A stretch of DNA of 24,905 nt from a virus. The notes under the pieces are model-generated. The model made no database searches and was not told the DNA's origin. It saw only the letters and a program-made list of their open reading frames with translations. The stretch lies in IMG/VR virus record IMGVR_UViG_3300036814_000054, positions 1-24,905 of that record; one strand, written 5' to 3'. The translations under genes were made by a program, and so were the position numbers. Shown here in pieces: positions 8,836 to 24,548 of this stretch (positions within the stretch are counted from its first letter, which is position 1; every line of letters begins with the position of its first letter).

Positions 8836-9360
8836 ATGCCTAAAACTATTCCCCAAGAAGTAAAAAACCGTGCTATGGAATTATACCTAAAAGATGATTC
8901 TTCAGCACGGGAAATTGCTGATGCAGTTTCCTCGGAATATTCCATTACGGTAAGTAATCAAACCGTGTACTCGTGGGCTAAGAAGTATAATTGGGATTCC
9001 AAGAGAACTGACGTAAAAACTAAAGCTTTAGAGAGAACTGTTGAAACTGAATCAGGTAGGCTCGTCAGGCTCCAACAGGAACATTTAGATGTTTACGGGA
9101 ATATACGAGAGAAGGCTACAGCCGAACTAAACAATCTCACATTCGATAGAGCTTTTGACGCTGTAAAAGCTGCATCTATAGGTATAGATGGAGAGCGGCA
9201 AGTAATTGAAGGTTTGATTAATTTACAATTTGTACAGGACGTTATCCAAATTCTAATTAGTGAGATTGACGATTCTGAACTAATGCAACGTCTCGCAGCT
9301 AAACTTAGACTTCTTGTTTCTAATACTGCCCAAGATAAGAAAGTGACAGTCATTGACTAA
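8836..9360 (+). CDS. terS: Terminase small subunit, HTH DNA-binding
   Basis: This 174-aa protein is the likely DNA-recognition subunit of the packaging motor. The N-terminal residues 8-55 form a helix-turn-helix of the terminase/transposase type (AREIADAVSS, then SNQTVYSWAKKYNW), typical of small terminases. The centre (about 60-110) is a long helical oligomerisation region. The C-terminal part ends in a short basic/hydrophobic strand (KKVTVID) that could contact TerL. It lies immediately before terL with an 8-nt overlap, the usual arrangement. No Shine-Dalgarno is seen before ATG 8836 and the preceding stop is 3 nt away, so translation is probably coupled. A transcription-regulator role is the main alternative. 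Confidence 0.8.
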   Translation: MPKTIPQEVKNRAMELYLKDDSSAREIADAVSSEYSITVSNQTVYSWAKKYNWDSKRTDVKTKALERTVETESGRLVRLQQEHLDVYGNIREKATAELNNLTFDRAFDAVKAASIGIDGERQVIEGLINLQFVQDVIQILISEIDDSELMQRLAAKLRLLVSNTAQDKKVTVID

Positions 9361-10996
9361 AGCGGAAACAGTTTCGGTTATAGATGCATTAGCTTTAATG
9401 GCTGACCAATTAGAGACTAATAAAAAGTTTGCTGTTGGGGGTTTTTGGGATTTCGTAAGAGATGTGTGGTCTCAAAGTTTCGACAACCCCTCCTTATTTA
9501 ATGCTTGGCATGTGGGACAAATTTGTGAAGATGTGGAATATGCGTTAGAAGAAGGGTTGAATTACGTAAGTGTGTTACCACGAGCGCATTTCAAATCCAC
9601 CATTTTAGGTCATGCTTTTGCTGTATGGCGGTTGTTAAAAATGGGAACTAATTCTAACACCTTGTACCTTTCTTACAGTGCTTCAATGGCTCAATATCAT
9701 ATAGGGGAACTAAAGAAAGAGGTTTCTAGGAATCCTATATTAATGCAGTGGTTAGTGGATAAAACCCCTAGAGGTGATTTTACTTTTAGGTACGGGATAG
9801 ATGGTAAGGTTGCTGAAATTTTACACGGGGGATTATTTTCATTCAAACGGGGACTACACGTTAACGGGGCATTGGTGGCAGATGACATCCTGCGTGACCC
9901 CGACAACCCGTTAGCTGTCGGTCAGATGAATAAAATCGAAGATCACTTCATGACTGAATCTATGTTCATACCTAATCGAGGGTGTCCAATTATAGTGGTG
10001 GGCACCCCAATGATACCGGGTGACCTGTTGACTGTCTTAGAGAAAGACGAGAGGTTTTTTACTAGGAAGCTTCCTGCGTTAGACCCGGAGCCGGGGCGCA
10101 GAGTTTTGTTCCCTAATATGTATTCTGAAAAGTTTTTACTTGACACACAAAAAGCTAATCCTAAATCGTTTGCATCTGAATTTTTATTGCAACCAGCGTT
10201 TAGTACGGAGGCTTATTTTTCTTATGATGAAATTTCCAGATGTGAGGATGCCAGCTTACGTAGTTTATCTGCTACGACAGAGCATCTCTTTAATGAGGAT
10301 GACGAGATTTACGCAGGGTTTGATGTAGGGAAAAAGCGACACCCTTCGCACCTAGTTGTTTTTAAAAGGAACGGGAGCTATCTAGAACAGATACATCAAT
10401 CGTTTCTGGATGGTTGGGATTATGCGGCGCAAATTGAATACTTGAATGATGCAGCGAAGAATTTTAAAATTACTAGAGGTTATATAGATAATACTCGTGG
10501 GGAGTTGGAGGACAGGGGACTGAACTCAGCTTGGTTCCCAATGTCGTTTACAAGTAAGAGTAAGCATACAATGGCTCAAATCTTTGAGGAGACAGTACAC
10601 AATGATACTTTAAGGCTGTTGCGAGACGAAAGACAAAAGCAGCAGATACTTTCAGTCAACAACGATTTGAAAGCTCCAGTCACCCCAATGGGGCATGGGG
10701 ATGCTTTCTTTTCAATTGGGATGGCTCTTACCGCCGCTCATGAAGCTAGTAGCTATAAGGTACAGGATGTAGGAAATTTAGCTACCGCCTTTGAACCGGA
10801 CAAAGAAGATGAAAGTGGCGTAAAAAAGATGATGGAAAGGTTGCAAAATGCCAGTAAGGAGGGGTATAATAATACTATACCCGTAGAGGAAAACCATCCT
10901 GATCGCCCTAATCCCGATTGCACGATCTCAGAATGTTCTCCCGCTGTATGGGTTCCAGAGAACAAACTTTGTCTATTATGTTTACACAGAGGTTAG
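9353..10996 (+). CDS. terL: Terminase large subunit, packaging ATPase and nuclease
   Basis: This 547-aa motor protein pumps DNA into the prohead and cuts concatemers. The ATPase part has a Walker A-like PRAHFKST with Arg77, Lys81, Ser82 and Thr83, a Walker B strand ending in Asp177-Asp178 (ALVADDI), and a coupling motif VVGTPMI. The RNase H-like nuclease part shows Asp324 (GFDVGKKRHPS), an acidic strand YIDNTRGE, and Asp450 (HGDAFFSIGMA). An unusual C-terminal extension carries Cys523-x4-Cys528 and Cys540-x2-Cys543 within the last 25 residues, resembling a small zinc knuckle. The start is TTG at 9353, overlapping terS by 8 nt, with only a weak AAGAAAG upstream; the ATG at 9401 would be a shorter alternative. 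Confidence 0.93.
   Translation: MTKAETVSVIDALALMADQLETNKKFAVGGFWDFVRDVWSQSFDNPSLFNAWHVGQICEDVEYALEEGLNYVSVLPRAHFKSTILGHAFAVWRLLKMGTNSNTLYLSYSASMAQYHIGELKKEVSRNPILMQWLVDKTPRGDFTFRYGIDGKVAEILHGGLFSFKRGLHVNGALVADDILRDPDNPLAVGQMNKIEDHFMTESMFIPNRGCPIIVVGTPMIPGDLLTVLEKDERFFTRKLPALDPEPGRRVLFPNMYSEKFLLDTQKANPKSFASEFLLQPAFSTEAYFSYDEISRCEDASLRSLSATTEHLFNEDDEIYAGFDVGKKRHPSHLVVFKRNGSYLEQIHQSFLDGWDYAAQIEYLNDAAKNFKITRGYIDNTRGELEDRGLNSAWFPMSFTSKSKHTMAQIFEETVHNDTLRLLRDERQKQQILSVNNDLKAPVTPMGHGDAFFSIGMALTAAHEASSYKVQDVGNLATAFEPDKEDESGVKKMMERLQNASKEGYNNTIPVEENHPDRPNPDCTISECSPAVWVPENKLCLLCLHRG
10841..10870 (+). promoter_or_regulatory. Candidate promoter for nrdJ, inside the end of terL
   Basis: TTGCAA (10841-10846, four of six -35 bases) and TATAAT (10865-10870) are separated by 18 nt. 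The -10 belongs to the repeated GTATAATA motif. Transcription would start near 10877, about 130 nt before the nrdJ ATG. Confidence 0.45.
10862..10882. repeat. Inverted repeat overlapping the candidate nrdJ promoter
   Basis: Perfect 7-bp arms, GGGTATA at 10862-10868 and TATACCC at 10876-10882, flank a 7-nt centre. It covers the -10 and probable start of the candidate promoter, so it could be an operator. It lies in terL coding sequence and may be chance. Confidence 0.5.
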
Positions 10997-11008
10997 TAGG
11001 AGATATAC

Positions 11009-12928
11009 ATGGTAACTTTAACATCCCAAGCTCAAATCGTAGCTGAAAAACGATACTTCCAAAAAAATGATGCTGGGACTCCTATTGAAGATGCGGACGA
11101 ATTGTTCAGAAGGGTAGCTAATGCGGTCGCAGTACCGGAGAGGAACTACGGGAAACTTGACGTAGAAATTAAAATGGTATCTAACGAGTTCTTTCAGATG
11201 ATGAGTGCCTTAGATTTCATCCCCAATTCCCCAACCCTTATGAATGCTGGTACTAATCAAGGTACCCTTTCCGCATGTTTTGTTCTACCCCTTGAAGATA
11301 GTATGGAAGGGATAATGAAAGCTGCAACTGATTCAGCGATGGTTCAAAAGTTTGGAGGGGGTACAGGCTTTGCGTTATCTAAACTTCGACCAAAGGGAGA
11401 TCGTATAAAAACTACACATGGAATATCTTGTGGGCCAATAGAAGTATTGAAAACCCTTTCACGGGTATCATCAATGATTACCCAAGGTGGGAAACGTGAT
11501 GGCGCAAACATGGCGGTGATGGATGTTCACCATCCGGACATCTTAGAGTTTATAGACTGTAAAAAAGTTGAGGGGGAGATACACAATTTTAATATTTCCG
11601 TGGGTGTTTCAGATAACTTTATGAAATCTGTCGTATCTGGAACGCATTTCCCTTTAATTAATCCACGTACCAACGCAATAGTGGGGGAGTTGGATGCGAG
11701 AGACGTTTTCAATAAAATAATAAACGGGGCATGGAGGAACGGAGAACCGGGCATGGTTTTCCTAGACACCATTAATAAAGATAATCATGTATCTGAGCAG
11801 TTCGGGGACATGATTGCAACCAACCCATGTGGTGAGCAGCCCTTACTACCCAATGAATCTTGCAATCTAGGCTCCATTAACCTAGCTAACTTTGTTGAGA
11901 CGAAACCAGATTCGGCTAATTGGAAAACAGGGGTTAACTGGAACCGGCTAGGAGCGGTGGTAAGAAGCTCTACAAGGTTTTTAGATAACGTAATTGATGC
12001 TAACGAGTATGCAACCCACGATATAGAAATTATGACTAAGAGTACCCGCAAAATAGGGTTGGGTATTATGGGCTTCGCCGATCTTCTAACTCAGTTACGT
12101 ATAGGCTATCATACTAAACTTGGTCGAGAGGTTGGCGGAGAAATTATGGGGTTTATAAAAGATGTTGCGGATAGTGAATCTAAGACATTATCGGATGAGC
12201 GAGGGGTGTTCCCAGCGTGGGGTAAGAGTGATTACGCTTCTTCCGAGACTCAGTTTAGAAATGCTTGCAGGATTACAGTTGCGCCCACAGGTACCATATC
12301 TATGCTAGCTGATACCTCAAGTGGGGTAGAACCCTTATTTGCTTTAGCGTGGCGCAAAACAAATATTCTTGAGGGAGAAACCCTACATTATATAAATAAA
12401 TATTTTGAGAAAGATGCAAAAAAACATGAGTTTTATTCAGAAGAGTTGATGGAACACATTTATGAGGGAGGGTCTATACAAGGTAGACCTGATGTACCTC
12501 AGTGGGTTAAGGATGTGTATGTTACATCCGATGAAATTTCTTCAGAAGCGCACGTACTTATGCAGTCAGCTTTCCAAAAGTCGTGTGACTCTGGCATTTC
12601 TAAGACGATTAACTTTCCGAACAGTGCTACAATAGAAGATGTATACGCTGCTTATATGATTGCATGGCAATCTAAATGTAAAGGTATCACAGTTTACCGT
12701 TCAGGAAGTAGGGTGAAAGAAGTGTTAGTAAAAGTGGAAACGCCTAAGTCAGGAGATGACCTAGATATCACAACTTACGATTATTTAGAGAATTTAGTAG
12801 ATGCACCTTTTCTGACTAAGGGTGAATCTACACAACTGGATACCTGTTGTGGCTCCCCGTTTATTGTAGAAGAGGGCGGTTGCTCCTCTTGCAAAGCTTG
12901 CGGATGGTCGAAATGTCATGTATCCTAA
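11009..12928 (+). CDS. nrdJ: Ribonucleotide reductase, class II (adenosylcobalamin-dependent)
   Basis: This 639-aa enzyme reduces ribonucleotides to deoxyribonucleotides for phage DNA synthesis, using a B12-derived radical. Key residues are in place: Cys90 (SACFVLP) and Cys285 (ESCNLGSINL) as the redox pair, and Asn272-x-Cys274-x-Glu276 (NPCGEQ) with the thiyl-radical cysteine. The 11-residue gap between Cys274 and Cys285 matches class II enzymes. VAPTGTISMLADTSSGVEP and CKGITVYRSGSR are typical NrdJ signatures. The C-terminal Cys cluster (CCGSP...GCSSCKACGWSKC) is the flexible arm that relays electrons from thioredoxin. No small (NrdB-like) subunit gene is present, as expected. It starts behind AGGAG (10998-11002) and interrupts the usual terL-portal order. 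A thioredoxin lies at the end of the window. Confidence 0.95.
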   Translation: MVTLTSQAQIVAEKRYFQKNDAGTPIEDADELFRRVANAVAVPERNYGKLDVEIKMVSNEFFQMMSALDFIPNSPTLMNAGTNQGTLSACFVLPLEDSMEGIMKAATDSAMVQKFGGGTGFALSKLRPKGDRIKTTHGISCGPIEVLKTLSRVSSMITQGGKRDGANMAVMDVHHPDILEFIDCKKVEGEIHNFNISVGVSDNFMKSVVSGTHFPLINPRTNAIVGELDARDVFNKIINGAWRNGEPGMVFLDTINKDNHVSEQFGDMIATNPCGEQPLLPNESCNLGSINLANFVETKPDSANWKTGVNWNRLGAVVRSSTRFLDNVIDANEYATHDIEIMTKSTRKIGLGIMGFADLLTQLRIGYHTKLGREVGGEIMGFIKDVADSESKTLSDERGVFPAWGKSDYASSETQFRNACRITVAPTGTISMLADTSSGVEPLFALAWRKTNILEGETLHYINKYFEKDAKKHEFYSEELMEHIYEGGSIQGRPDVPQWVKDVYVTSDEISSEAHVLMQSAFQKSCDSGISKTINFPNSATIEDVYAAYMIAWQSKCKGITVYRSGSRVKEVLVKVETPKSGDDLDITTYDYLENLVDAPFLTKGESTQLDTCCGSPFIVEEGGCSSCKACGWSKCHVS

Positions 12929-13427: not shown

Positions 13428-15461
13428 ATGAAAATTCTGGATTACTTACCTGAAGCTCCATCTTTGGTAGAAAAGATGGATGAACTTAACGCTAAACTTG
13501 GAATGCAGAGTATGCTAAATCTGAGTAAATCCACTGGGGATACGGGTAAATCACCTACATTTGGTATTGATTATATTGTCAACCAATATATTAAGAACCA
13601 AATTGGATTTCGTAAACAACTTATCCAAGATTTACAAACCATTGCTTTTTCAGTAGAGGAAATACGAGGCCCTATAGGACATATTACGGGTGAGGTTTTC
13701 CGAAGAGGTTTAGAATTCCATCCCGTAAACGACCAAGCGGACGAAAAACAGTTAATAAAGCTGAAGAAGGTCATGAAGGATTGTAATATATTTGACCAGA
13801 GTTTGGAAGAAGTGCTTAGGCAGTTCCACCTAGATTTAAATACAGTGGATGATGCGTTCATTTATCTAAACAAAGAATATTACGCTACTGAAGACGGGGA
13901 GCTTAGGTCGAGAATTATAGAGATTCGACGCTTGAACCCAGCTTTGGTTGAATTTGATCTGAATGAAGAGGGGTTGCCCAAGAAGCAGCATTTCTTATGC
14001 CCTATTCACAGGGACTCCGGTTTAGGGCAAAATGCAGAGTACGTAGAACAAGCCGAGATTTCGGCTACCGCACAGAAACCGGGTGTATGTACCGGGAATG
14101 ATTGTTCCGTACAGACTGTACCAGCGATGTATAGGTACTCTAACCGTAGTAAAATTTATTACCTACTTGACTCCGAAGTTATACATCTATCTAAATTTTC
14201 CCCGACTGAAACATATGGATGGTCGCCTATACTAACAGTATTTGAGAAGGCTTTAACTCTCATAGGAATGGATAGGAACCTTTACAGGTACTTCTTTGAG
14301 CGTAAAATGCCTTCCGCTATGTTACTGGTGTCCACAGATGACCCGGAAAGCTTACGTCGTGAAAGAGAAAATATCGCCGCTCAAACAAAGCAAGACCCGA
14401 ACTACATTCCGATGGTTGCTGTATCTTCTAAAACGAATAGGGGTAGAGTAGACATGGTTAGGCTTTTCCATACTCTACAAGAGATGGATTACCTTCCAGT
14501 GAAAGAAGAAATACGTGAACGAGTTGCCGCATTGTGGGGTGTGTCCCCAGCATGGCAGGGAACCCCAGAAGCGTTTGGTGGGCTGTCAACTCAAACACAA
14601 GGTCTACAAGTTATGAGTCGTGTGGTAGAATCAGACCAACGGTTATACCATGAAAAAGTATTCCCGTTGATATTAGAAGCTTACGGGATTACGGATTGGA
14701 CTTTATCTTTACCTCACCCAGAAGAAAAAGCTGAAGCTACAAGGATTAATTTTGCTAGTCAAAGAGTTCAAATTGCAAAGCAACTGAACGACCTAGGGTT
14801 TGACCTTGTGTTGAAACAACAAGATTCCAATATGGATGATGTAGACTTTATTGTATCTGGGGAACCTGTACCGTCTGCCCAGATTAGGGGTGAGACTGAG
14901 GTTCTTGCTCTAACTGCACAAGAAGAGCAGATGAAGCAACAACAGATGCAGTTGATGGAGCAGCAACTTGCTGCTGAAGAAGCTGGGAAAGAAGGTGGTG
15001 GGGAAGAACCTGTTGAACAATCTATGGATGTAGATAAAGCTGAAGGAAAATTTAAGGACAGGAACTTAGGTTGGAGAACTCCAGACGCTAATGATAAAAT
15101 GCCATTAGATGAACGTGATCTAGACGAGTACGCTGAGGCACGTGCGGAAAAGGGAGAAGATAGATCGTTTGGCTTAGTAAAGGGGGGTACGTCAACTTGG
15201 ATGGAAGGTCTTTACGAGCTGGGTTACTCATCACCTCTAGTAAAAGAAATTACCCCAGACGGTAGTAAGATGTGGTTCACGGATAGTAATAAAAGCTTTG
15301 TTGCACACTTAACTCCTTTTGGCGTTTCGAAAGTTGAACCCGCAACTTTCACAACAGCTCGCCCACAACGCAAGAAGGTTGAACCATCTAATCAATTACA
15401 GTCAAATGCTCCATCCTCTTCTGGAGTTACGACTCTAACAGATATGGAGGAAGATGAATAA
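13428..15461 (+). CDS. Portal protein with inserted Cys/His cluster
   Basis: This 677-aa protein should form the dodecameric ring through which DNA enters and leaves the capsid. Portal-like features include the early helical FRKQLIQDLQTIAFSVEEIRG region, a segment VIHLSKFSPTETYGWSPI (about 250-270) where portals carry the 'hlr.f.p....yG.SpL' signature, and the later VAALWGVSPAWQGTPEA and QRLYHEKVFPLIL stretches. Inserted in the wing region is a possible zinc site: Cys191-x2-His194 and Cys221-x4-Cys226. The C-terminal 170 residues are Gln/Glu-rich and acidic, then carry a distinct domain with WFTDSNKSFVAHL. Residues 535-540 (VDKAEG) match a motif repeated in the neighbouring structural proteins. 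SD-like AGAGGA precedes ATG 13428. Confidence 0.85.
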   Translation: MKILDYLPEAPSLVEKMDELNAKLGMQSMLNLSKSTGDTGKSPTFGIDYIVNQYIKNQIGFRKQLIQDLQTIAFSVEEIRGPIGHITGEVFRRGLEFHPVNDQADEKQLIKLKKVMKDCNIFDQSLEEVLRQFHLDLNTVDDAFIYLNKEYYATEDGELRSRIIEIRRLNPALVEFDLNEEGLPKKQHFLCPIHRDSGLGQNAEYVEQAEISATAQKPGVCTGNDCSVQTVPAMYRYSNRSKIYYLLDSEVIHLSKFSPTETYGWSPILTVFEKALTLIGMDRNLYRYFFERKMPSAMLLVSTDDPESLRRERENIAAQTKQDPNYIPMVAVSSKTNRGRVDMVRLFHTLQEMDYLPVKEEIRERVAALWGVSPAWQGTPEAFGGLSTQTQGLQVMSRVVESDQRLYHEKVFPLILEAYGITDWTLSLPHPEEKAEATRINFASQRVQIAKQLNDLGFDLVLKQQDSNMDDVDFIVSGEPVPSAQIRGETEVLALTAQEEQMKQQQMQLMEQQLAAEEAGKEGGGEEPVEQSMDVDKAEGKFKDRNLGWRTPDANDKMPLDERDLDEYAEARAEKGEDRSFGLVKGGTSTWMEGLYELGYSSPLVKEITPDGSKMWFTDSNKSFVAHLTPFGVSKVEPATFTTARPQRKKVEPSNQLQSNAPSSSGVTTLTDMEEDE

Positions 15462-16660
15462 TGTCTGACAAAATGGAAAAAGCACCTGAGAGAGATGTTG
15501 GGGATGACCTCCACCCCCGAGAAATGGTTGGAAAACCGGAGCAGGTTGCCCGTAATGACGGGAGTATTTTAGAGAGGGGTCAAAGACATGAGGATGAAAT
15601 TCACCCCAACTCTGATGGGGGGGAATATTTAAAACCTAATGATTCTGATGGGTCATCTAAACATGCATACATAGATAAGAAGGTAGATAACGCCACTGGA
15701 ACTGTGACATATTTTTACGAGAACGGTGTACGATCTATACATCACCCAGACATGCTTAAAAATAACCCAGCTTTCCATAATCGGCAAGCTGAGGCCCACA
15801 GAAAGCAAGCTCAAGACAGTAGCTTCTTTGATAACACGGCATCTCGTAGTCATTTAACTGCGGCGCATGGGCATGATCTTGCCGCTTCTAGTAAAGAAAA
15901 ATACGCTCGAAGAAATCAGGAATATAAACGAGTGGCGAGAACTTGGGCTGAGAGGGTCGGGTCTGAGGATGAGGGCAAGACCGTACCTGAATTAGACGAG
16001 ATAGGTAGACCCGTTCAAGGCAAACCAGCAACCCCACGTAATCGTCCAAGACGCTCCGCAGATAGTGGGCCGGTAGAGAATCTAGAGAAATCCCACCTTT
16101 CCGTGTTTACGAATTTCTTAGATAAACAGGGAGCTATAGGAACGGTTGACGGGATGGGTACTGTTGCTGTATCATCAGACCCCGGAGTATTTTCCCCCAC
16201 ATATGGGGAGAGGTCACCGATTAAACAGAAAAAGAAAAAAAGTGGCGTTGCTAAACTAGACCAGTTTTTACGGACGAAAAATAAAAAGGTAGAGAAATTT
16301 GCCACAGATGTTGTGCAGGGGGCTTTGCAAGACCTGAGAGAGTATGATATCATGAAAATAGATGATGATAAATATGGCGAAGACGAGCGGGTTGTGGATA
16401 AAGCTGAAGGAGTAGCGGCTCCTAAAGCAGCCATTAAGCAAAAACAGGAACCTAAACCAGAAAAGCAGCCGAGTGAACCCAAGCCTCAAAAGGTTACGAG
16501 TCCACGAAGCATTTATAAAGCAGAGGACAGCGAAGAGTTTTTTAGTCTATTCAAAGATTACTTTGAATACCTAGATAAGGAAGAGGAGAGTACAGATGAT
16601 TCCAGAGATGGCGAAGAAAGACTTGATTCAGAAGAGACGAGCAGGGGCGACTTGGACTAG
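15461..16660 (+). CDS. Unknown, largely disordered head-cluster protein (399 aa)
   Basis: No family is recognised. The start ATG shares a base with the portal stop (TAATG) and has GGAGGA upstream. Composition is strongly polar: an acidic/polar N-terminus with HPREM and HPNSDGGEY, a His-rich centre (SIHHPDMLKNNPAFHNRQAEAHRKQ), a basic run KQKKKKSG near residue 252, and a Lys/Pro/Glu-rich C-terminus (KQKQEPKPEKQPSEPKP). Two Lys-Ala-Glu sites, at Lys314 (VDKAEG) and Lys353 (IYKAED), bracket that linker. This suggests an internal head or scaffold-type protein processed during maturation; that is inference. A seven-G run lies at 15617-15623. Its last 65 nt overlap the phosphoesterase gene. Confidence 0.7.
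   Translation: MSDKMEKAPERDVGDDLHPREMVGKPEQVARNDGSILERGQRHEDEIHPNSDGGEYLKPNDSDGSSKHAYIDKKVDNATGTVTYFYENGVRSIHHPDMLKNNPAFHNRQAEAHRKQAQDSSFFDNTASRSHLTAAHGHDLAASSKEKYARRNQEYKRVARTWAERVGSEDEGKTVPELDEIGRPVQGKPATPRNRPRRSADSGPVENLEKSHLSVFTNFLDKQGAIGTVDGMGTVAVSSDPGVFSPTYGERSPIKQKKKKSGVAKLDQFLRTKNKKVEKFATDVVQGALQDLREYDIMKIDDDKYGEDERVVDKAEGVAAPKAAIKQKQEPKPEKQPSEPKPQKVTSPRSIYKAEDSEEFFSLFKDYFEYLDKEEESTDDSRDGEERLDSEETSRGDLD
16584..16588 (+). promoter_or_regulatory. Ribosome binding site deciding the 16596 start
   Basis: AGGAG lies 7 nt before ATG 16596, inside the upstream gene. It supports the 65-nt overlap over the later in-frame ATG at 16608. Confidence 0.7.
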
Positions 16661-17933
16661 TTTAGCCCAGTCGTTAGAAGAAGAGTATGGGATAGGGGTG
16701 CATCGTTCCACAATACAGCGTTGGTATGACCGTGAGGTATTCGATATAAATTCGATCCTTGATGAAACTGCCGCTAAGATGGCAGATACTGTTGCTCCTG
16801 AAGAAGAGGAAGATTTCTTAAAAGATCGTATACGCATAGATAAGCGGGCCGCAACATATAAAGCGGAATCTACTTACTATAAAAAGTTATATGAAAAATC
16901 CATAAAGGATTCTGTACAATCAGAAATTCTTGTGGATACTATAAAGCGTTACACAACTCCCCACCCTAAAACTAAAACCTTTAAAGTACGTAAACCTTCT
17001 GGAGTTAAAAAAGGTTCAGAGAAACAGGTTATGGTTGCCCCACTTACGGATACACACGTAGGGGATTACGTAACTCCTGAACAGATGGTAGGTTTGAACT
17101 CCTATGACATTGAGTTGTTTAACCGCCGTATATGGGGCTGGGCTAACCAAGTTCTAAACCTAGCAGAGTATAGGCGAAATATCTGTGAGATAGATGAACT
17201 TACCATACCCATGCTAGGGGACATGATCTCCGGAGATATACACGATGAATTAGCCCGCACCAATGTTGACAACTGTATGATGCAGATGATGTATGGGGCA
17301 AAAATAATTAGCCAAGCTTTAATGTTTCTGGCACCCCACTTTAAAGAAGTCAAAGTTCCTTGTGTTGTTGGTAACCACGGTAGGATGACTAGGAAGATTC
17401 CGTCCAAAGATAGGTACATGGATTGGGATTACATGTTGTACCAATGGCTTGCAGTATTCTGTTCTAAACAGGACAACATAAAGTTTGAAATACCTAAGTC
17501 GTTTGCCCATGTTATCTCTGTTGCAGGAAGAGATATACTAATGATGCACGGTGACTCCGTTGGTGGAGGTGGGGCGTCGGCGACTATTCAGAAGGCTGTG
17601 ACTTCACTGAGAGCAGTCTTGCAGTACAAGACGCAAATAATAACTGACGATGGTTTCAGTGTCTCCGATAAGTTCGATGACGTTTTACTGGGTCACTTTC
17701 ATCGTGTGGATGAAATAGATATCGGAACAGGCAGTTTGCATATTTGCGGTACAACAAAAGGTGGGGACGAGTACGTGTTTAGTCGCTTACACCTTATAAC
17801 TAAACCTAAGCATTTAGTTTTATACTACCACCCTACCTATGGTCAAGTTGGTAAAGAGGTAATTTACTTAGATAGATTCGATTCTGTTGAATCTGGGTTT
17901 GGTTTGGAACTACCTGAAGTGTGGCAGACATAG
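16596..17933 (+). CDS. HTH-metallophosphoesterase fusion protein
   Basis: This 445-aa protein joins an N-terminal helix-turn-helix (residues 10-46, TSLAQSLEEEYG then HRSTIQRWYDRE) to a calcineurin-like phosphoesterase. All five metal-site motifs are present in order: Asp152-x-His154 (DTHVGD), Asp209 (LGDMISGD), Asn260-His261 (GNHGR), His318 (MMHGDS) and His367-x-His369 (GHFHR). Two metal ions would allow cleavage of phosphodiesters or phosphomonoesters; the HTH points to DNA as substrate or docking site, making it a possible nuclease or end-processing enzyme related in outline to Mre11/SbcD. A linker of about 90 residues (60-145) is highly charged. The HTH is laid out like that of the small terminase. 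It sits between structural genes, odd for a repair enzyme. Confidence 0.88.
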   Translation: MIPEMAKKDLIQKRRAGATWTSLAQSLEEEYGIGVHRSTIQRWYDREVFDINSILDETAAKMADTVAPEEEEDFLKDRIRIDKRAATYKAESTYYKKLYEKSIKDSVQSEILVDTIKRYTTPHPKTKTFKVRKPSGVKKGSEKQVMVAPLTDTHVGDYVTPEQMVGLNSYDIELFNRRIWGWANQVLNLAEYRRNICEIDELTIPMLGDMISGDIHDELARTNVDNCMMQMMYGAKIISQALMFLAPHFKEVKVPCVVGNHGRMTRKIPSKDRYMDWDYMLYQWLAVFCSKQDNIKFEIPKSFAHVISVAGRDILMMHGDSVGGGGASATIQKAVTSLRAVLQYKTQIITDDGFSVSDKFDDVLLGHFHRVDEIDIGTGSLHICGTTKGGDEYVFSRLHLITKPKHLVLYYHPTYGQVGKEVIYLDRFDSVESGFGLELPEVWQT

Positions 17934-17944: not shown

Positions 17945-18328
17945 ATGGATGAATTACAAGACCTTCTATACGGACTCGTGCAGAACTTAGTTATGGAGAT
18001 TACTCAGGAACTAGCTGAGACTTCAAACATACCTGTTTCTGAGGGTGGTGTTATGCCTGTAAAGACTGGGAGACTTCGTTCGTCCTTAATGGTGACTCAG
18101 GTTGGTGACGACACTGTAGACCTTACTTACAATACACCGTACGCTACTCTAATACATGATGGTGGTACAGTAGGTGGGGCGAAGTATAAGGCGCAGAGGT
18201 ATTTAGCTATACCTCTAGAAGAAATATTATCAGATTTACCACGAAGAATTGAGAAGTCATTTGATGAGGTAGGCTCAAAACTGGGCGGGGGTTTAACTGT
18301 AAAAATTGAACCCACCACAGTATTATAA
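17945..18328 (+). CDS. HK97 gp10-like head-tail/neck protein
   Basis: This 127-aa protein resembles the HK97 gp10-like family, small virion proteins of the head-tail junction or tail completion. The signature is KTGRLRSSL (residues 40-48) followed by a strand pair and NTPYATLIHDGGTVGG (63-78), matching the family pattern 'tG.Lr.Si......... .v.....YA.yvE.Gt'. An N-terminal amphipathic helix (1-27) precedes it. It starts at ATG 17945 without a visible ribosome binding site, 11 nt after the previous stop. Placement before the capsid gene rather than after it is unusual for HK97-like gene order. Confidence 0.72.
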   Translation: MDELQDLLYGLVQNLVMEITQELAETSNIPVSEGGVMPVKTGRLRSSLMVTQVGDDTVDLTYNTPYATLIHDGGTVGGAKYKAQRYLAIPLEEILSDLPRRIEKSFDEVGSKLGGGLTVKIEPTTVL

Positions 18329-18339
18329 GGAGATAGATT

Positions 18340-18558
18340 ATGGATGTAGAAAAGGTTAGTGAGGAGCAAGAGTGGGTTTTAGCTCGCCATTCTAGAATGG
18401 TGGGTAAAGTTTTAGATCAAATTGAGTCCTCAGTACCCGAGGGTAACCAATGTGAGAAGATGAAAAAACTAGTACAGGTTCCTCTTTATGACTTTCGTAA
18501 CGAGATACTTCGATATCTTGAAGGTAATGTAGATATAAATTCTTATAAAGACGCATAA
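18340..18558 (+). CDS. Hypothetical small protein (72 aa)
   Basis: Unknown function. It starts at ATG 18340 behind AAGGAG (18328-18333), which begins at the stop of the gp10-like gene. It is predicted helical throughout: an acidic/Trp-containing N-terminal helix (SEEQEWVLARHSRMVGKVLDQ), a short loop with its only Cys (NQCEKMKK), and LVQVPLYDFRNEILRYLEG. No membrane span. It is the last gene before the capsid leader, so it may be a minor head or assembly protein. Confidence 0.65.
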   Translation: MDVEKVSEEQEWVLARHSRMVGKVLDQIESSVPEGNQCEKMKKLVQVPLYDFRNEILRYLEGNVDINSYKDA

Positions 18559-19517: not shown

Positions 19518-20891
19518 ATGTCAGTTTCACTTGCAGAATATATTGCTCAGGCGAACCGTGGGGCAACCCAATCGGTTCTAGGCTCTGAGTACTTGTCGAA
19601 GGCGTTTAGCGGGACACCGTTTACCGTCGATACCGACACAAACATATTTACGACCACTTTCGGTCGTAAGGTATGGCATGCACTGAATAACCAAACTAGG
19701 TTCTTCAACGCACTTCCCAGAAATGTCTGGGGTAACGTAGCTGGTTGGAGGGTACGTTCAGACCGTGGGTCGGAACGCTCTAACCCAATTACAGAGACGG
19801 GTTCACTCCCATCTGTGGACATCTCAGCGATTCAGACAGTATCTTCACTGCCTAGTATTGTTGGTACGACGTTCGCAGCCTCCGTCAAGGCGATGTTTAC
19901 ATCGCAGCTTGAGGGTGGTGTTGGTGATGTTCTTGCTCTTGAGAACGAGAACGCACAGCTAGACCACATCAAGGAAATGAACCTTGAGCTTCTAGCTTCT
20001 TCAGTAGCGGGCATTACGACCGCAACATCGGATTCCTCAGTTGTCTTGACTAACGCAAACAACTTTAGGGTTGGTGACGCACTTGGTTTCTCAGATGCTG
20101 GTAACCTTGAGAACACTACGGGTGCTCAAATTACCGCTAAGGCGGCAGACCGGACGCTGACATTTGTAGCAGCTACCGGTGTGCTAGGTTCACCTCCAGC
20201 ACAAGCTGACGCTGTTTTCACATACAGTCGAGCGGGCTTGACTTCAATTGATGACATTGTTTCAATTGATGGAACTAACGTCCTTGATGGTACAAACGCT
20301 ACTTATGCTAACGCTTACGACCTCACTGCTACCTTGGCAACTGCTGGTCGAACCGTTGCAGATAACCCGTGGAAAACTGCGGCATCCGTACAAGCGAACG
20401 ATGGTACCGGACGAGACCTTTCCCTGAACCTTCTCGATACAGCTATCCAGAAGATTCGTACCAATGGTGGTGAGCCAAAACTTATCGTCATGGGTCATGA
20501 CCAGTACTTCAAGCTTGAGCGTTTGTTGAACTCTCAGCAGAGGTATCTTGGACAGGAAGAGTACACGGTTGGTATTGGTTCGGAGAAGACTTTCCCCGGC
20601 ACCCGCACTGGTCTGATTCTTGCTACTTACATGGGCATTCCAATTCTTCCAGATGCGGATACCACGAAGTCAGCTAAGATTGGTTCTACTGGCGGTACTC
20701 ACGGTTCTAACGTTTACGTACTAGATACGGATTATCTTGAAGTTGCGGTAGCACAGCCTACCCAGTACATCGAGAACCGTGACTACTTTGCGGCTTCGTC
20801 GCTAGTAGTTCGTGGTTTGCTCTATACGATGGCTGAACTCAGGGCACACCGTTTTGACGTACAAGCAAAGATTGTTGATCTGAACGAGTAA
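19518..20891 (+). CDS. Major capsid protein (HK97-fold)
   Basis: This 457-aa protein is the probable shell subunit. Support: it lies behind the scaffold-like gene with a strong AGGAGG (19502-19507), is followed at once by a strong terminator, and uses visibly more C-ending and CTT codons than its neighbours, as expected for a very abundant protein. An N-terminal region of about 30 residues ends at YLSKAF (Lys28-Ala29), a possible processing site. The E-loop/P-domain region includes RVRSDRGSERSNPITETG and a long helix (GDVLALENENAQLDHIKEMN). A Thr/Ala-rich insertion (about 165-260) may be a surface domain. The C-terminal YTMAELRAHRFDVQAKI fits the closing strand of HK97-type capsid proteins. 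Confidence 0.83.
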   Translation: MSVSLAEYIAQANRGATQSVLGSEYLSKAFSGTPFTVDTDTNIFTTTFGRKVWHALNNQTRFFNALPRNVWGNVAGWRVRSDRGSERSNPITETGSLPSVDISAIQTVSSLPSIVGTTFAASVKAMFTSQLEGGVGDVLALENENAQLDHIKEMNLELLASSVAGITTATSDSSVVLTNANNFRVGDALGFSDAGNLENTTGAQITAKAADRTLTFVAATGVLGSPPAQADAVFTYSRAGLTSIDDIVSIDGTNVLDGTNATYANAYDLTATLATAGRTVADNPWKTAASVQANDGTGRDLSLNLLDTAIQKIRTNGGEPKLIVMGHDQYFKLERLLNSQQRYLGQEEYTVGIGSEKTFPGTRTGLILATYMGIPILPDADTTKSAKIGSTGGTHGSNVYVLDTDYLEVAVAQPTQYIENRDYFAASSLVVRGLLYTMAELRAHRFDVQAKIVDLNE

Positions 20892-21585: not shown

Positions 21586-22536
21586 ATGGTTAATACTTCG
21601 ATAACGCATGATGAGTGGCCCTCATGGGAGGTAGACCCTAGTACTAGAACGTCTACTCATCCGTTCACTAAGTACTACCCCTTTAAGGTGACTTTAGATA
21701 CCGCTAACACGGCGGAAGATTTGTTTGCGGTTGCCAGAGGGGATGCCGCTGTAAACTTGGTAACCAACCCTCGGGTTGAAGCTGCTGATATTACTGAGTT
21801 CACTGCAACGGGGTCTGCTATTTCCAGAAGTACTTCCCAACAGGATACCGGAGCAGCGTCACTATTAGTTAATCCAGATAACTCCGCTGCTGGTGAAGGT
21901 GTTTATACCCAAGTTTCAACTGGAGGCGGTAATGGTCAACAGCCTGTAGTTCTAACGGGTCAAGCAACTGTCCGTGGAGCTAGTGCTTCAGGGGCTGTTC
22001 AAATTATTATTACGGATTCTAGTGACGCTACAGTAGCTACAGGTAATACTATTTCCTTATCCACAGCATTCCAGCAATTGCAGGTGAAATATGAGATACC
22101 ACCTCTAACAGCATCTAACAACCTACGTATAAAGATTGTTACAACTACTGACATTAACATTGATTTCTATGTAGATAAGTTCCACAACGAAATCCGTAAC
22201 GGTAGCGGGTACTCTACCTACACCGACGGATCGCAAGGGCGTAACTTCTCATGGTTCGGAACTGCTGATGCCTCCATGTCTAAAAAGCGGGTGGATTCTG
22301 TTGTGATACGAGGAATTCGTTTACACACATCACATGACATATGGTTGGCTTTTGATTGTACCGCATCATCTTCCACAGGTATTTGGGTAGGTGATCCAGC
22401 AGCGGCTACTCCTAGTTCAGGTTTCTTTGAAACTACGTTTCCGGTAGACTTCAGGAAGAATGTAAGTTTCGTAAACGGAACCGGGTCTGAGACACCAGTG
22501 GTTTACGGAGTAGTGTGGGGGATACACCAAGCCTAA
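21586..22536 (+). CDS. Virion-associated protein with carbohydrate-binding-like domain
   Basis: This 316-aa protein starts behind AGGAG (21571-21575). After an N-terminal segment rich in aromatic residues (DEWPSWEV, HPFTKYYPF), residues about 56-200 look like a jelly-roll carbohydrate-binding module (CBM 4/9-like): NLVTNPRVEAADITEFTATG opens the domain, then QDTGAASLLV, and DFYVDKFHNEI closes it. The remaining part (about 200-316) is a beta-rich domain with YTDGSQGRNFSWFGTA and a C-terminal VVYGVVWGIHQA. A surface role in binding host or environmental glycans is likely, as capsid decoration or a tail-associated protein; place in the head cluster favours the former. No catalytic motif is seen. 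Confidence 0.62.
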   Translation: MVNTSITHDEWPSWEVDPSTRTSTHPFTKYYPFKVTLDTANTAEDLFAVARGDAAVNLVTNPRVEAADITEFTATGSAISRSTSQQDTGAASLLVNPDNSAAGEGVYTQVSTGGGNGQQPVVLTGQATVRGASASGAVQIIITDSSDATVATGNTISLSTAFQQLQVKYEIPPLTASNNLRIKIVTTTDINIDFYVDKFHNEIRNGSGYSTYTDGSQGRNFSWFGTADASMSKKRVDSVVIRGIRLHTSHDIWLAFDCTASSSTGIWVGDPAAATPSSGFFETTFPVDFRKNVSFVNGTGSETPVVYGVVWGIHQA

Positions 22537-24548
22537 TGACTACCAACGTTGCATACAAACAATGGTTAGCTGAGAGTGATGAATCTATCGTCTTTCTTGA
22601 TAAGGCTGATGGTGGTAAAGTCACAATGGATGATGTACAGGGAGGTTTAAAGGAGTACAAACGTTTATTCAAGGCTGGGTTAGCATCCCCGGCTGAGCTA
22701 CTTACTTTACATAGAGCCTATCCAGACATTTCAAAGTATGCCAACGTAGTCGAGATACTTGACTTAAACGGAGAGGCTGAACCTACCGTTATAGGAGGCC
22801 CAGCTTCAGTGGAGTTGGTGGACAGGGAGGGGCACTTGATTACCTCTAACGCTTTGGAGGACGCTTTCGAGCGGTACATGGATAACTTTAGAACCCGCAA
22901 TGTAATGGTTATGCACTCTGACGTTCAGGTTGGACATGCGTTACCTGTATATGTTTCAAAGGGCGGGCAGATATTTAAGAGCGGGGTAGAAGGCGATAAC
23001 TTATTTTTCATATCAGAACTTAGAGATGATACAAAAATATCTAGGAAAGTTAAAGAGCAAATCACTTCCGGTAAGATGAGGTCATACTCTATTGCTGGCA
23101 GTGCAACTAAGACAAAAAATATTAGCAAAGGTGCAGATTCTTACATGCAGGTGGATGGCTTAGAGCTTGCAGAGATAACTATTTGTGAGAAAGGTGTGAA
23201 CCAAGGGGCGCACTTCGAGATAATGAAAGCTGAACAAACAATTCCAACTGAAGCTGATGATAATTTATTCGTAATCAGTAAGGGTGATATACCCTCGTTC
23301 ACTGAAGTGTTCTCCACATGGTTCGGTAAAGCGTCAAAGGAGGGCTATGTGCCTGAACTAAAAGGAAAACAAATGGCTGTGCTTGAAAATGGGACAGCTA
23401 GACAGATTCAACACAGAGCTTTACTGGACGAAATGGGATTCCCTATGTATGTTTATCCGGAGAATCTACGGCACCCTGTCGATTACGATGAACCCGGCAG
23501 ACCTGTACCATCCAAGATAGTAAACCAAGCCGGTCAGGATTTGGGCGATGCTAACATAGAGGATATGGTTAAGTCCGCAACGGATACATTCATTAATATT
23601 TTACGTAAAACGTCTGACGGAGACCAGACTAGAACGAGAACTACAACTCGTTATCGTGGTGAGTTACCTAGAGCGGCGGTAGGTAGCAACCAGAGAACTC
23701 AACAGGCATCAGGGGGACAACTTGGCAAGGTAGTTTCAAAAGCTGGGACTTCCGTGAAATATGAGTATCCATCAAGGGGTACAAACTATCAGGGTACTGT
23801 AGAGACAACCACCTATACAGACGCACCTAAAGGGAGTTCGACCAGTCAAAGAACAACTGCGGTACCAACGGAAAAAGTTAGTGAGAAATCTAAGGGACGC
23901 AGCACTGAGACTGAAAAAGGTTTGATAGGAGACGTTGTGGGTGGTGCTGCTAAGGTTGTGGGTGCGGGTGTGAAAGGTGTGGGAGGTGCTCTAGTTGGTG
24001 GAGCGGCTGGACTAACTGGCAGTAAACAGACTGTGGATTGGGCGGGCGAGAAGTCCATGGAGTTCTTTGACTTCGTGGACAAGATGAATGAGACCACCCC
24101 AGTCCATAAACCTAATATCAATCCCGTTGATATGAATGAATACACTGGTGATGAAGAGAAAGATAAGGCAGCTGAGAAGGGATTTCTAACCGAGACATCC
24201 CCTAGAAAAACTGATCCAAAGCCACATCCCTATAGTAAAGGGGTGGAAGGTCGTTCAGATAAAAGACCCAGCCATTTTAACGTAGGGGGGGGCTCTCTTA
24301 TACAAACTTCTGTTGATGAGGACGAAGAAGAATCCCTGAAAAAATCCACGGATATATTCAAACGTGTACTGGAAGCAGAGAAACCTGACGAAACATGGAC
24401 AGGGACTGACAAAGAAGTACCAATGGAGAAAATTATTGGTGCTCTACTAGCTCCTGTAGCTGGAGTTATAGGTGCTGGTTTAGGTGCTGCTGCGGGAGCT
24501 GTGGGTAGTGCGGCGGGTGGAGCCGCTAAGAAAATTATCGGCGGGTAA
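22536..24548 (+). CDS. Prohead protease (XkdF-like) fused to a long hydrophobic-tipped tail
   Basis: This 670-aa protein has two parts. Residues about 75-230 form an XkdF/S78-type prohead protease: VELVDREGHLITSNALEDAF opens the domain, His127 lies in MHSD, Ser185 (SYSIAG) is the likely nucleophile, and LAEITICEKGVNQGAHF with Glu213 closes it. Lys231-Ala232 (IMKAEQ) follows directly and could be the self-cleavage site. The remaining 440 residues hold a TerS/structural-unlike region, a Ser/Thr/Arg-rich linker and two Gly/Ala/Val-rich hydrophobic segments (462-495 and 630-670). The second is at the very C-terminus. They resemble membrane-active or pore-forming segments. I choose ATG 22536, overlapping the previous stop by one base; the GTG at 22515 lies within the upstream gene. 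An eight-G run is at 24285-24292. Confidence 0.72.
   Translation: MTTNVAYKQWLAESDESIVFLDKADGGKVTMDDVQGGLKEYKRLFKAGLASPAELLTLHRAYPDISKYANVVEILDLNGEAEPTVIGGPASVELVDREGHLITSNALEDAFERYMDNFRTRNVMVMHSDVQVGHALPVYVSKGGQIFKSGVEGDNLFFISELRDDTKISRKVKEQITSGKMRSYSIAGSATKTKNISKGADSYMQVDGLELAEITICEKGVNQGAHFEIMKAEQTIPTEADDNLFVISKGDIPSFTEVFSTWFGKASKEGYVPELKGKQMAVLENGTARQIQHRALLDEMGFPMYVYPENLRHPVDYDEPGRPVPSKIVNQAGQDLGDANIEDMVKSATDTFINILRKTSDGDQTRTRTTTRYRGELPRAAVGSNQRTQQASGGQLGKVVSKAGTSVKYEYPSRGTNYQGTVETTTYTDAPKGSSTSQRTTAVPTEKVSEKSKGRSTETEKGLIGDVVGGAAKVVGAGVKGVGGALVGGAAGLTGSKQTVDWAGEKSMEFFDFVDKMNETTPVHKPNINPVDMNEYTGDEEKDKAAEKGFLTETSPRKTDPKPHPYSKGVEGRSDKRPSHFNVGGGSLIQTSVDEDEEESLKKSTDIFKRVLEAEKPDETWTGTDKEVPMEKIIGALLAPVAGVIGAGLGAAAGAVGSAAGGAAKKIIGG

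What the first reader, a model, noticed from the sequence alone, without database searches (positions are those of the whole stretch)
16596..17933. HTH-calcineurin phosphoesterase fusion inside the head gene cluster
A DNA-binding HTH joined by a charged linker to a phosphoesterase with all metal motifs intact is placed between portal-associated and neck genes, not with replication genes. Its HTH is arranged like that of the small terminase of the same phage. It may process DNA ends at packaging, act as a second DNA-recognition factor or degrade host DNA.
Basis: partly seen in the sequence, partly recalled or inferred. Interest (0 to 1): 0.52.

Follow-up and report, generated by a model that had tools for sequence, protein, structure and literature searches.

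The report
DNA-binding nuclease among virus head genes
A group of uncultured tailed viruses carries, between its portal and capsid genes, a predicted DNA-cutting enzyme with a DNA-binding end like that of the packaging protein; the enzyme family is known, and whether it helps pack DNA or simply processes DNA is untested.

Summary
Window 16596-17933 (+) encodes 445 aa: a three-helix HTH (residues 2-49), a predicted helical linker and a metallophosphoesterase with every metal motif intact (45 of 45 relatives). It belongs to PHROG 284, the phage "YonJ-like/exonuclease" family, closest in fold to the PolD DP1 3'-5' exonuclease and then Mre11. Its HTH does resemble the small terminase HTH of the same virus group (profile comparison 94% probability). 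The place is fixed: in a portal-anchored sample 41 of 41 loci spanning portal to g23/capsid gene carry it in between.

The packaging interpretation is only partly supported. A ribonucleotide reductase gene is equally fixed between TerL and portal (47 of 47), so location is weak evidence. In 14 named phage records the family lies beside terminase/portal genes in 4 and among replication, recombination, nucleotide or accessory genes in 8. Its divergence tracks portal and capsid less well than they track each other, the two HTHs do not co-vary, and TerL keeps its own nuclease residues.

Most likely it is a DP1/Mre11-type nuclease processing viral DNA late in infection; a direct packaging role remains possible. 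New member of a known family.

The parts
16596..17933 (+). HTH-metallophosphoesterase gene (445 aa), PHROG 284 / YonJ-like
   Evidence: phrog_284 E 1.4e-44, phrog_704 5.6e-10
16584..16588 (+). AGGAG ribosome-binding site, 7 nt before the ATG, inside the end of the upstream ORF
   Evidence: read from sequence
16599..16742 (+). N-terminal three-helix HTH, residues 2-49, small-terminase/homeodomain-like type
16743..17000 (+). charged helical linker, residues 50-135 (coiled-coil-like, low confidence)
17025..17885 (+). metallophosphoesterase domain, residues 144-430, DP1/Mre11-like fold
17043..17063 (+). metal motif I, LTDTHVG (D152, H154)
17214..17237 (+). metal motif II, LGDMISGD (D209)
17370..17384 (+). 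metal motif III, GNHGR (N260, H261, R263)
17547..17555 (+). metal motif IV, HGD (H318)
17691..17702 (+). metal motif V, GHFH (H367, H369)
8836..9360 (+). small terminase (TerS, Terminase_5); HTH at residues 5-53 = 8848-8994, the HTH compared
9353..10996 (+). large terminase; nuclease residues D324, D379, D450 invariant in 22 of 22 aligned
11009..12928 (+). ribonucleotide reductase large subunit (NrdA) between TerL and portal; control for location
13428..15461 (+). portal
   Evidence: phrog_18178; haloarchaeal virus portals
15461..16660 (+). g20, variable protein of unknown function whose end overlaps the gene
17945..18328 (+). neck / tail completion protein
   Evidence: phrog_5
18340..18558 (+). 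g23, small conserved protein, downstream anchor of the synteny test
19518..20891 (+). major capsid protein (SU10-type)

Best explanation
It is a viral nuclease of the YonJ/PHROG 284 family: a two-metal DP1/Mre11-type phosphoesterase, brought to DNA by an N-terminal HTH and probably self-associating through the helical linker. It most likely trims or cuts viral DNA ends and branched or concatemeric intermediates late in infection, together with the virus's Cas4-type exonuclease, RecA/UvsX-type recombinase and RuvC, so that clean DNA is available when packaging begins. Shown: family, intact catalytic residues, HTH, fixed place, core gene. Inferred: nuclease activity, DNA binding, self-association, substrate, timing.
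For: phrog_284 exonuclease E 1.4e-44 and phrog_704 DNA repair exonuclease 5.6e-10. Fold: best PDB match PolD DP1 (8ppt_A, Foldseek E 2.5e-8, probability 1.00; VIA Z 15.1, rmsd 3.9, 238 aligned), Mre11 Z 12 to 13. A family profile matches DP1 (6knb_A) over 245 positions through all motifs, E 0.0013. Metal ligands 45 of 45. Named relatives sit among replication, recombination, nucleotide or accessory genes in 8 of 14 records, several with recombination exonuclease, annealing protein, HNH nuclease, DNA polymerase or RNR genes. The window holds Cas4-type, RecA/UvsX and RuvC genes. Core gene: 41 of 41. In matched genomes its divergence follows the enzyme NrdA as well as portal or capsid, or better.
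Against: No activity is shown for any member of the family in what I could read; 'exonuclease' is a predicted label, and the same fold serves phosphatases and phosphodiesterases (one search lists Vps29, LpxH, SMPDL3A). If it were only a repair enzyme, its invariant seat between portal and neck, its coupling to the head operon by a 65-nt overlap in this clade, and its TerS-type HTH would be unexplained.
Confidence: 0.5

Rival explanations
1. Packaging factor: the TerS-type HTH places the nuclease on viral DNA at the portal/terminase, where it helps cut or trim ends at initiation or termination of packaging, as the HNH protein gp74 does for HK97.
For: HTH of TerS type (G20c small terminase DNA-binding domain tops the structural list, Z 7.5, rmsd 1.7, 50 of 52, tied within 1 with GcrA, a transposase and Pax6). 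Fixed place beside the portal in 41 of 41, next to terminase genes in SPbeta-like phages and PJN02. Same order in a 42%-identical relative. Precedent: HNH gp74 stimulates cos cleavage (passages of PMC9410871).
Against: NrdA is just as fixed in the cluster (47 of 47). MPE-portal distance correlation 0.54 against portal-capsid 0.82 in 44 genomes. The two HTHs do not co-vary (own pairs no more alike than shuffled pairs, p 0.20, 44 genomes). TerL nuclease residues intact. 8 of 14 named relatives lie elsewhere.
Confidence: 0.22
2. Host takeover nuclease: it degrades the host chromosome, the HTH giving general DNA binding.
For: DNase-type fold; T5 A1 is a calcineurin-like phosphoesterase by the review passage seen and is annotated as involved in host DNA degradation.
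Against: T5 A1 is phrog_1745, not phrog_284, with no profile match to this family; it is pre-early in T5 (recalled, and it lies in the first-step-transfer repeat), whereas this gene lies among late-type head genes.
Confidence: 0.1
3. Not a DNA nuclease: a phosphodiesterase or phosphatase of signal nucleotides or RNA ends, the HTH serving regulation or protein contact.
For: The superfamily is catalytically diverse; a jumbo-phage review suggests such roles for some calcineurin-like enzymes (passages of PMC7824862).
Against: Fused HTH, DP1-first fold ranking and neighbours in other phages point to DNA.
Confidence: 0.1
4. Proofreading subunit for the viral polymerase, as DP1 is for PolD.
For: Closest fold is DP1; several relatives carry the name 'DNA polymerase II small subunit'.
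Against: The viral PolA has its own 3'-5' exonuclease domain above Pfam's cut-off (PF01612), and no DP2 was seen in the window.
Confidence: 0.04

Closest known systems
YonJ-like / PHROG 284 phage exonuclease family (SPbeta YonJ, halovirus HF1 and BJ1 ORF43)
   Same: Same family by profile; all metal motifs; an HTH-like N-terminal stretch also in SPbeta-like members (hhalign 46%, E 2e-4); beside the TerS-position gene, TerL and portal in SPbeta-like phages. The YonJ naming of BJ1 ORF43 and HF1 was read in a passage of PMC2194725.
   Different: 17-25% identity to named relatives; HTH much closer to TerS; seat between portal and neck instead of upstream of the terminase.
Archaeal PolD small subunit DP1 (3'-5' proofreading exonuclease)
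   Same: Catalytic fold and motif order.
   Different: No DP2-type polymerase seen; HTH plus helical linker at the N-terminus; viral PolA already has an exonuclease.
Mre11/SbcD nuclease
   Same: Catalytic fold, Z about 12 to 13.
   Different: GNHGR instead of GNHD (GNHD recalled for Mre11); no Rad50/SbcC gene seen in the window.
Phage small terminase (TerS; G20c, Terminase_5)
   Same: Three-helix HTH.
   Different: Carries an enzyme domain in place of the TerS oligomerisation core; a real TerS is encoded elsewhere in the window (8836-9360).
HK97 gp74-type HNH packaging nuclease
   Same: A nuclease of a phage proposed to act in packaging (passages of PMC9410871).
   Different: Unrelated fold (recalled); stimulation of cos cleavage is shown there, nothing is shown here.
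T5 A1
   Same: Calcineurin-like phosphoesterase of a phage (passage).
   Different: Other family (phrog_1745), no profile match.

Membership tests
PHROG 284 (YonJ-like phage exonuclease) | significant profile match over most of the protein | tested here: met
   E 1.4e-44, residues 41-414 on profile 47-383 of 398
PHROG 284 (YonJ-like phage exonuclease) | exonuclease activity | not testable with these tools
   label is predicted; no assay found (YonJ search)
Calcineurin-like metallophosphoesterase superfamily | D-H, GD, GNH, H, GHxH metal ligands | tested here: met
   8 ligands identical in 45 of 45
Calcineurin-like metallophosphoesterase superfamily | fold | tested here: met
   Foldseek and VIA matches
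PolD DP1 | DP1-like catalytic domain | tested here: met
   Z 15.1, profile match 6knb_A E 0.0013
PolD DP1 | partner DP2 polymerase in the same genome | tested here: inconclusive
   window encodes PolA, no DP2 seen, but the record is a 24.9 kb fragment
Mre11/SbcD | fold | tested here: met
   Z 12 to 13
Mre11/SbcD | Rad50/SbcC partner | tested here: inconclusive
   none seen in the window fragment
Phage small terminase | TerS-type HTH | tested here: met
   hhalign 94%, E 1.2e-7; best of 24 templates
Phage small terminase | TerS oligomerisation core and place upstream of TerL | tested here: not met
   HTH is followed by a metallophosphoesterase; gene lies after portal; separate TerS at 8836-9360
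T5 A1 host-DNA nuclease | membership of the A1 family | tested here: not met
   A1 is phrog_1745, this protein phrog_284; hhalign probability 0.4%
Packaging-associated nuclease (works like HK97 gp74) | stimulates terminase cleavage or packaging | not testable with these tools
   needs in vitro packaging

The most novel reading that the evidence does not exclude
The virus group uses a third DNA-handling packaging component: a nuclease that carries its own copy of a small-terminase HTH and acts at the portal, so that DNA recognition and end trimming are joined in one protein distinct from TerS and TerL. SPbeta-like phages, where YonJ adjoins the terminase, would share the trait.
Probability: 0.2. 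Interest if true: 0.65.

Novelty: new member of a known kind. Interest (0 to 1): 0.36.

Why it matters
PHROG 284 enzymes are spread over phages of many bacteria and of haloarchaea, yet the papers found here say nothing tested about what they do. This group gives a well-conserved version with an invariant genome place and a terminase-type HTH, so one knockout or biochemical study, for instance of YonJ in laboratory SPbeta, could decide between DNA processing and packaging for the whole family.

Tried and rejected
Pfam and NCBIfam name no phosphoesterase for the window protein at E 0.1, and 4 of 45 relatives hit Metallophos_2 and 1 of 45 Metallophos at E up to 1: the family is too divergent for those models; PHROGs and fold were needed. 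phmmer and the narrow profile A2 gave no meaningful PDB match; the broader A3 did.

Proofreading subunit: set aside because PolA has an exonuclease domain. T5 A1 orthologue: set aside.

Shared DNA target of the two HTHs: in 19 genomes (of 21 with a TerS match) the MPE HTH looked more conserved relative to the window than the TerS HTH (median identity 70 against 46%). In 44 genomes pairwise distances were closer (median 0.46 against 0.55) and no co-variation was seen, so the first figure is not used as an argument. Caveats: three rows (L046, L051, L054) are cut off by contig ends in the catalytic part, and L035's TerS start was picked too late.

Distance correlations used different genome sets per gene pair; one search repeats them on matched sets, and only those are argued from.

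Searches gave high rmsd over long alignments, a sign that domains and linker are not placed consistently; Z and aligned length are quoted. Foldseek found no significant match for the HTH alone (best E 3.0); the VIA list re-aligns only those 90 chains, and its top rows are within 1 Z of other HTH proteins.

Promoter/terminator scan: 34 promoter-like sites against 23.1 expected and 9 terminator-like against 9.3; nothing was built on it. RNA fold at the start codon was unremarkable (z -1.04). The scan with the MW202713 protein gave 15 loci in which no other gene of the window's set was found by tblastn. DSL-LC01's 'terminase small subunit' beside the gene matches only an unknown family here (phrog_3979), so it is not counted as packaging context.

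Paper searches: YonJ with phage; metallophosphoesterase + terminase + helix-turn-helix + portal; calcineurin-like phosphoesterase + terminase + DNA packaging; SPbeta late genes; T5 A1 with DNase and Mre11 (65); polymerase II small subunit with phage; HNH with cos cleavage; marine virus/Mre11/metallophosphatase. In the listings and passages I saw, no functional study of this family appeared. Papers opened for passages only: PMC2194725, PMC5135824, PMC7824862, PMC8616854, PMC9410871, PMC3316494; the other papers were seen as search listings.

Full report
WHAT IS THERE. The window is an IMG/VR virus record of 24,905 bases, linear and so probably a fragment. It runs, all on the + strand: DnaB-type helicase, primase, PolA, RecA/UvsX-type recombinase, Cas4-type exonuclease, RuvC, TerS, TerL, ribonucleotide reductase NrdA, g18, portal, g20, the gene of the finding, neck protein, g23, g24, SU10-type capsid protein, three unassigned genes, a protease-bearing protein and a thioredoxin. 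The finding's ORF, 16596-17933, is real: 445 aa, good ribosome-binding site, start kept in relatives, overlapping g20 by 65 nt.

DOMAINS. AlphaFold2 from 45 relatives (mean pLDDT 75.4) gives a three-helix HTH at 4-47, helices through about 119 at low confidence, and a metallophosphoesterase core at 144-430. All eight metal ligands are identical in 45 of 45 relatives; in 17 diverse members including named phages they are kept in 14 to 17 of 17. PHROG 284 'exonuclease' fits at E 1.4e-44. The best solved structure is the DP1 3'-5' exonuclease of archaeal PolD (Z 15.1, rmsd 3.9, 238 aligned), with Mre11 at Z 12 to 13; a broad family profile also reaches DP1 by sequence (E 0.0013).

THE HTH. Profile against profile: probability 94%, E 1.2e-7, 48 columns with one gap; score 36.6 against a maximum of 18.7 in 200 column shuffles. 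Among 24 single templates (own TerS, other terminase-position proteins, a transposase, repressors, a sigma factor, window proteins), own TerS is first and the only one aligned over the whole HTH. By structure, the DNA-binding domain of the phage G20c small terminase is first (Z 7.5, rmsd 1.7, 50 of 52 residues), tied within 1 Z with GcrA, an IS transposase and Pax6. Pfam sees sub-threshold homeodomain-like models in both HTHs, and for the MPE best a Tc3 transposase model. So the HTH is of the terminase/transposase type; this alone does not tell its target.

PLACE. In an MPE-anchored sample of 99 loci (55, 44 added; tallied), the portal lies upstream in 77 of 77 that hold one, and g23 or the capsid gene downstream in 80 of 80. 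That sample was chosen by the gene itself, so I drew another by the portal (80 loci): 41 loci span portal to g23/capsid, and 41 of 41 have the gene in between. The other 39 of 80 do not reach g23 or the capsid gene and were left out. A 42%-identical relative on a 110-kb contig binned with Daviesbacteria keeps TerL, portal, this gene, g23 and protease in the same order. It is a core gene with a fixed seat, up to about 6 kb separating portal and it in the group.

WHY PLACE IS NOT PROOF. NrdA lies between TerL and portal in 47 of 47 loci that can show it, and other metabolic-looking genes are inserted around the MPE (by eye). In 44 matched genomes the distances of MPE correlate with portal at 0.54 (bootstrap 5-95% range 0.43-0.65) and capsid 0.51 (0.34-0.62), while portal and capsid correlate at 0.82 (0.75-0.87). 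In 41 genomes MPE follows TerS (0.77), NrdA (0.76), TerL (0.72) and portal (0.68) about equally, and portal-TerL is 0.86. So it evolves like the enzymes rather than like the tightest head genes; ranges in the 41-genome set overlap, and this is moderate evidence.

SAME TARGET AS TerS? In 44 genomes the MPE HTH is no more like its own TerS HTH than like others (p 0.20 in 5000 permutations), and HTH distances correlate at only 0.26. This speaks against a shared, co-evolving packaging site, not against a general DNA role at the portal. TerL keeps D324, D379 and D450 in 22 of 22 aligned (their assignment as nuclease residues is mine, by position and motif), so the enzyme is not a stand-in for a lost terminase nuclease.

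ELSEWHERE. tblastn finds 107 phage records at E 1e-3, all under 60% identity. I read the surroundings of 14. In four the gene is upstream of the TerS-position gene, TerL and portal: PJN02, Goe14, Staphylococcus SPbeta-like and Clostridioides AR1086-1 (in the Staphylococcus record the TerS-position gene and portal were scored, TerL was not; PJN02 rests on its annotation). In eight it lies among replication, recombination, nucleotide or accessory genes: BU2-2, KBS-S-2A, Dagobah, HVTV-1, Mx1, MMB025, phiKSUM and Vibrio PS17B-2. Two are unclear: MW202713 and DSL-LC01. An N-terminal HTH-like stretch is also found in SPbeta-like members (hhalign 46%, E 2e-4) and, below Pfam's cut-offs, in HVTV-1 and MW202713, while none was recognised in BU2-2 or DSL-LC01. 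The HTH plus phosphoesterase layout is thus probably not unique to this virus.

MECHANISM. Most likely (0.5): a DP1/Mre11-type nuclease, HTH-guided, processing viral DNA ends or branched concatemers late in infection. Next (0.22): a packaging factor proper, as HNH gp74 is in HK97 (passages of PMC9410871). Host DNA degradation (0.1), non-nuclease phosphodiesterase (0.1) and proofreading (0.04) follow. Shown here: family, fold, intact ligands, HTH type, fixed place. Inferred: activity, DNA binding, substrate, timing.

KNOWN OR NEW. The family was noticed before: BJ1 ORF43 was matched to an HF1 protein that 'may be a YonJ like, small subunit of the DNA polymerase' (passage of PMC2194725), and calcineurin-like genes in halovirus fosmids that also carry terminase genes were compared with the PolD small subunit (passages of PMC3316494). 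The searches listed under Tried and rejected showed no functional study. I file it as a new member of a known kind with an unusually fixed place.

Noticed in passing
window 11009-12928: A ribonucleotide reductase large-subunit gene is fixed between TerL and portal: 47 of 47 portal-anchored loci that hold both.
   Followed up: yes
L116 12-743, 1682-2569, 6212-6970, 7785-9968; L084 3908-7225: Variable proteins between portal and the finding's gene share, by eye, an N-terminal stretch like FLEKQ..LVPKKVP (L116, L084); could mark proteins packed into the head or a protease site.
   Followed up: no
window portal (13428-15461) and g20 (15461-16660): Both hold a VDKAEG motif (translations), possibly a head-protease cleavage site.
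   Followed up: no
L089 5651-6871, L083 1617-1886, L084 8676-9821, L078 4410-4817: Relatives carry inserted genes resembling TusA, ThyX and a PnrA/BMP lipoprotein (by eye) and thioredoxin (tblastn match to the window's) next to the finding's gene: an insertion hot spot.
   Followed up: partly
window 13428-15461 and 22515-24548: Portal has haloarchaeal viruses (HVTV-1 and others) as its only named relatives in the phage collection, and the protease-bearing protein also matches HVTV-1, at about 27 and 34% identity, although the replication genes look bacterial.
   Followed up: partly
L116 (JACOXG010000010.1): A relative of this virus group sits on a 110-kb contig binned as Candidatus Daviesbacteria; a possible host hint or a binning error.
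   Followed up: partly
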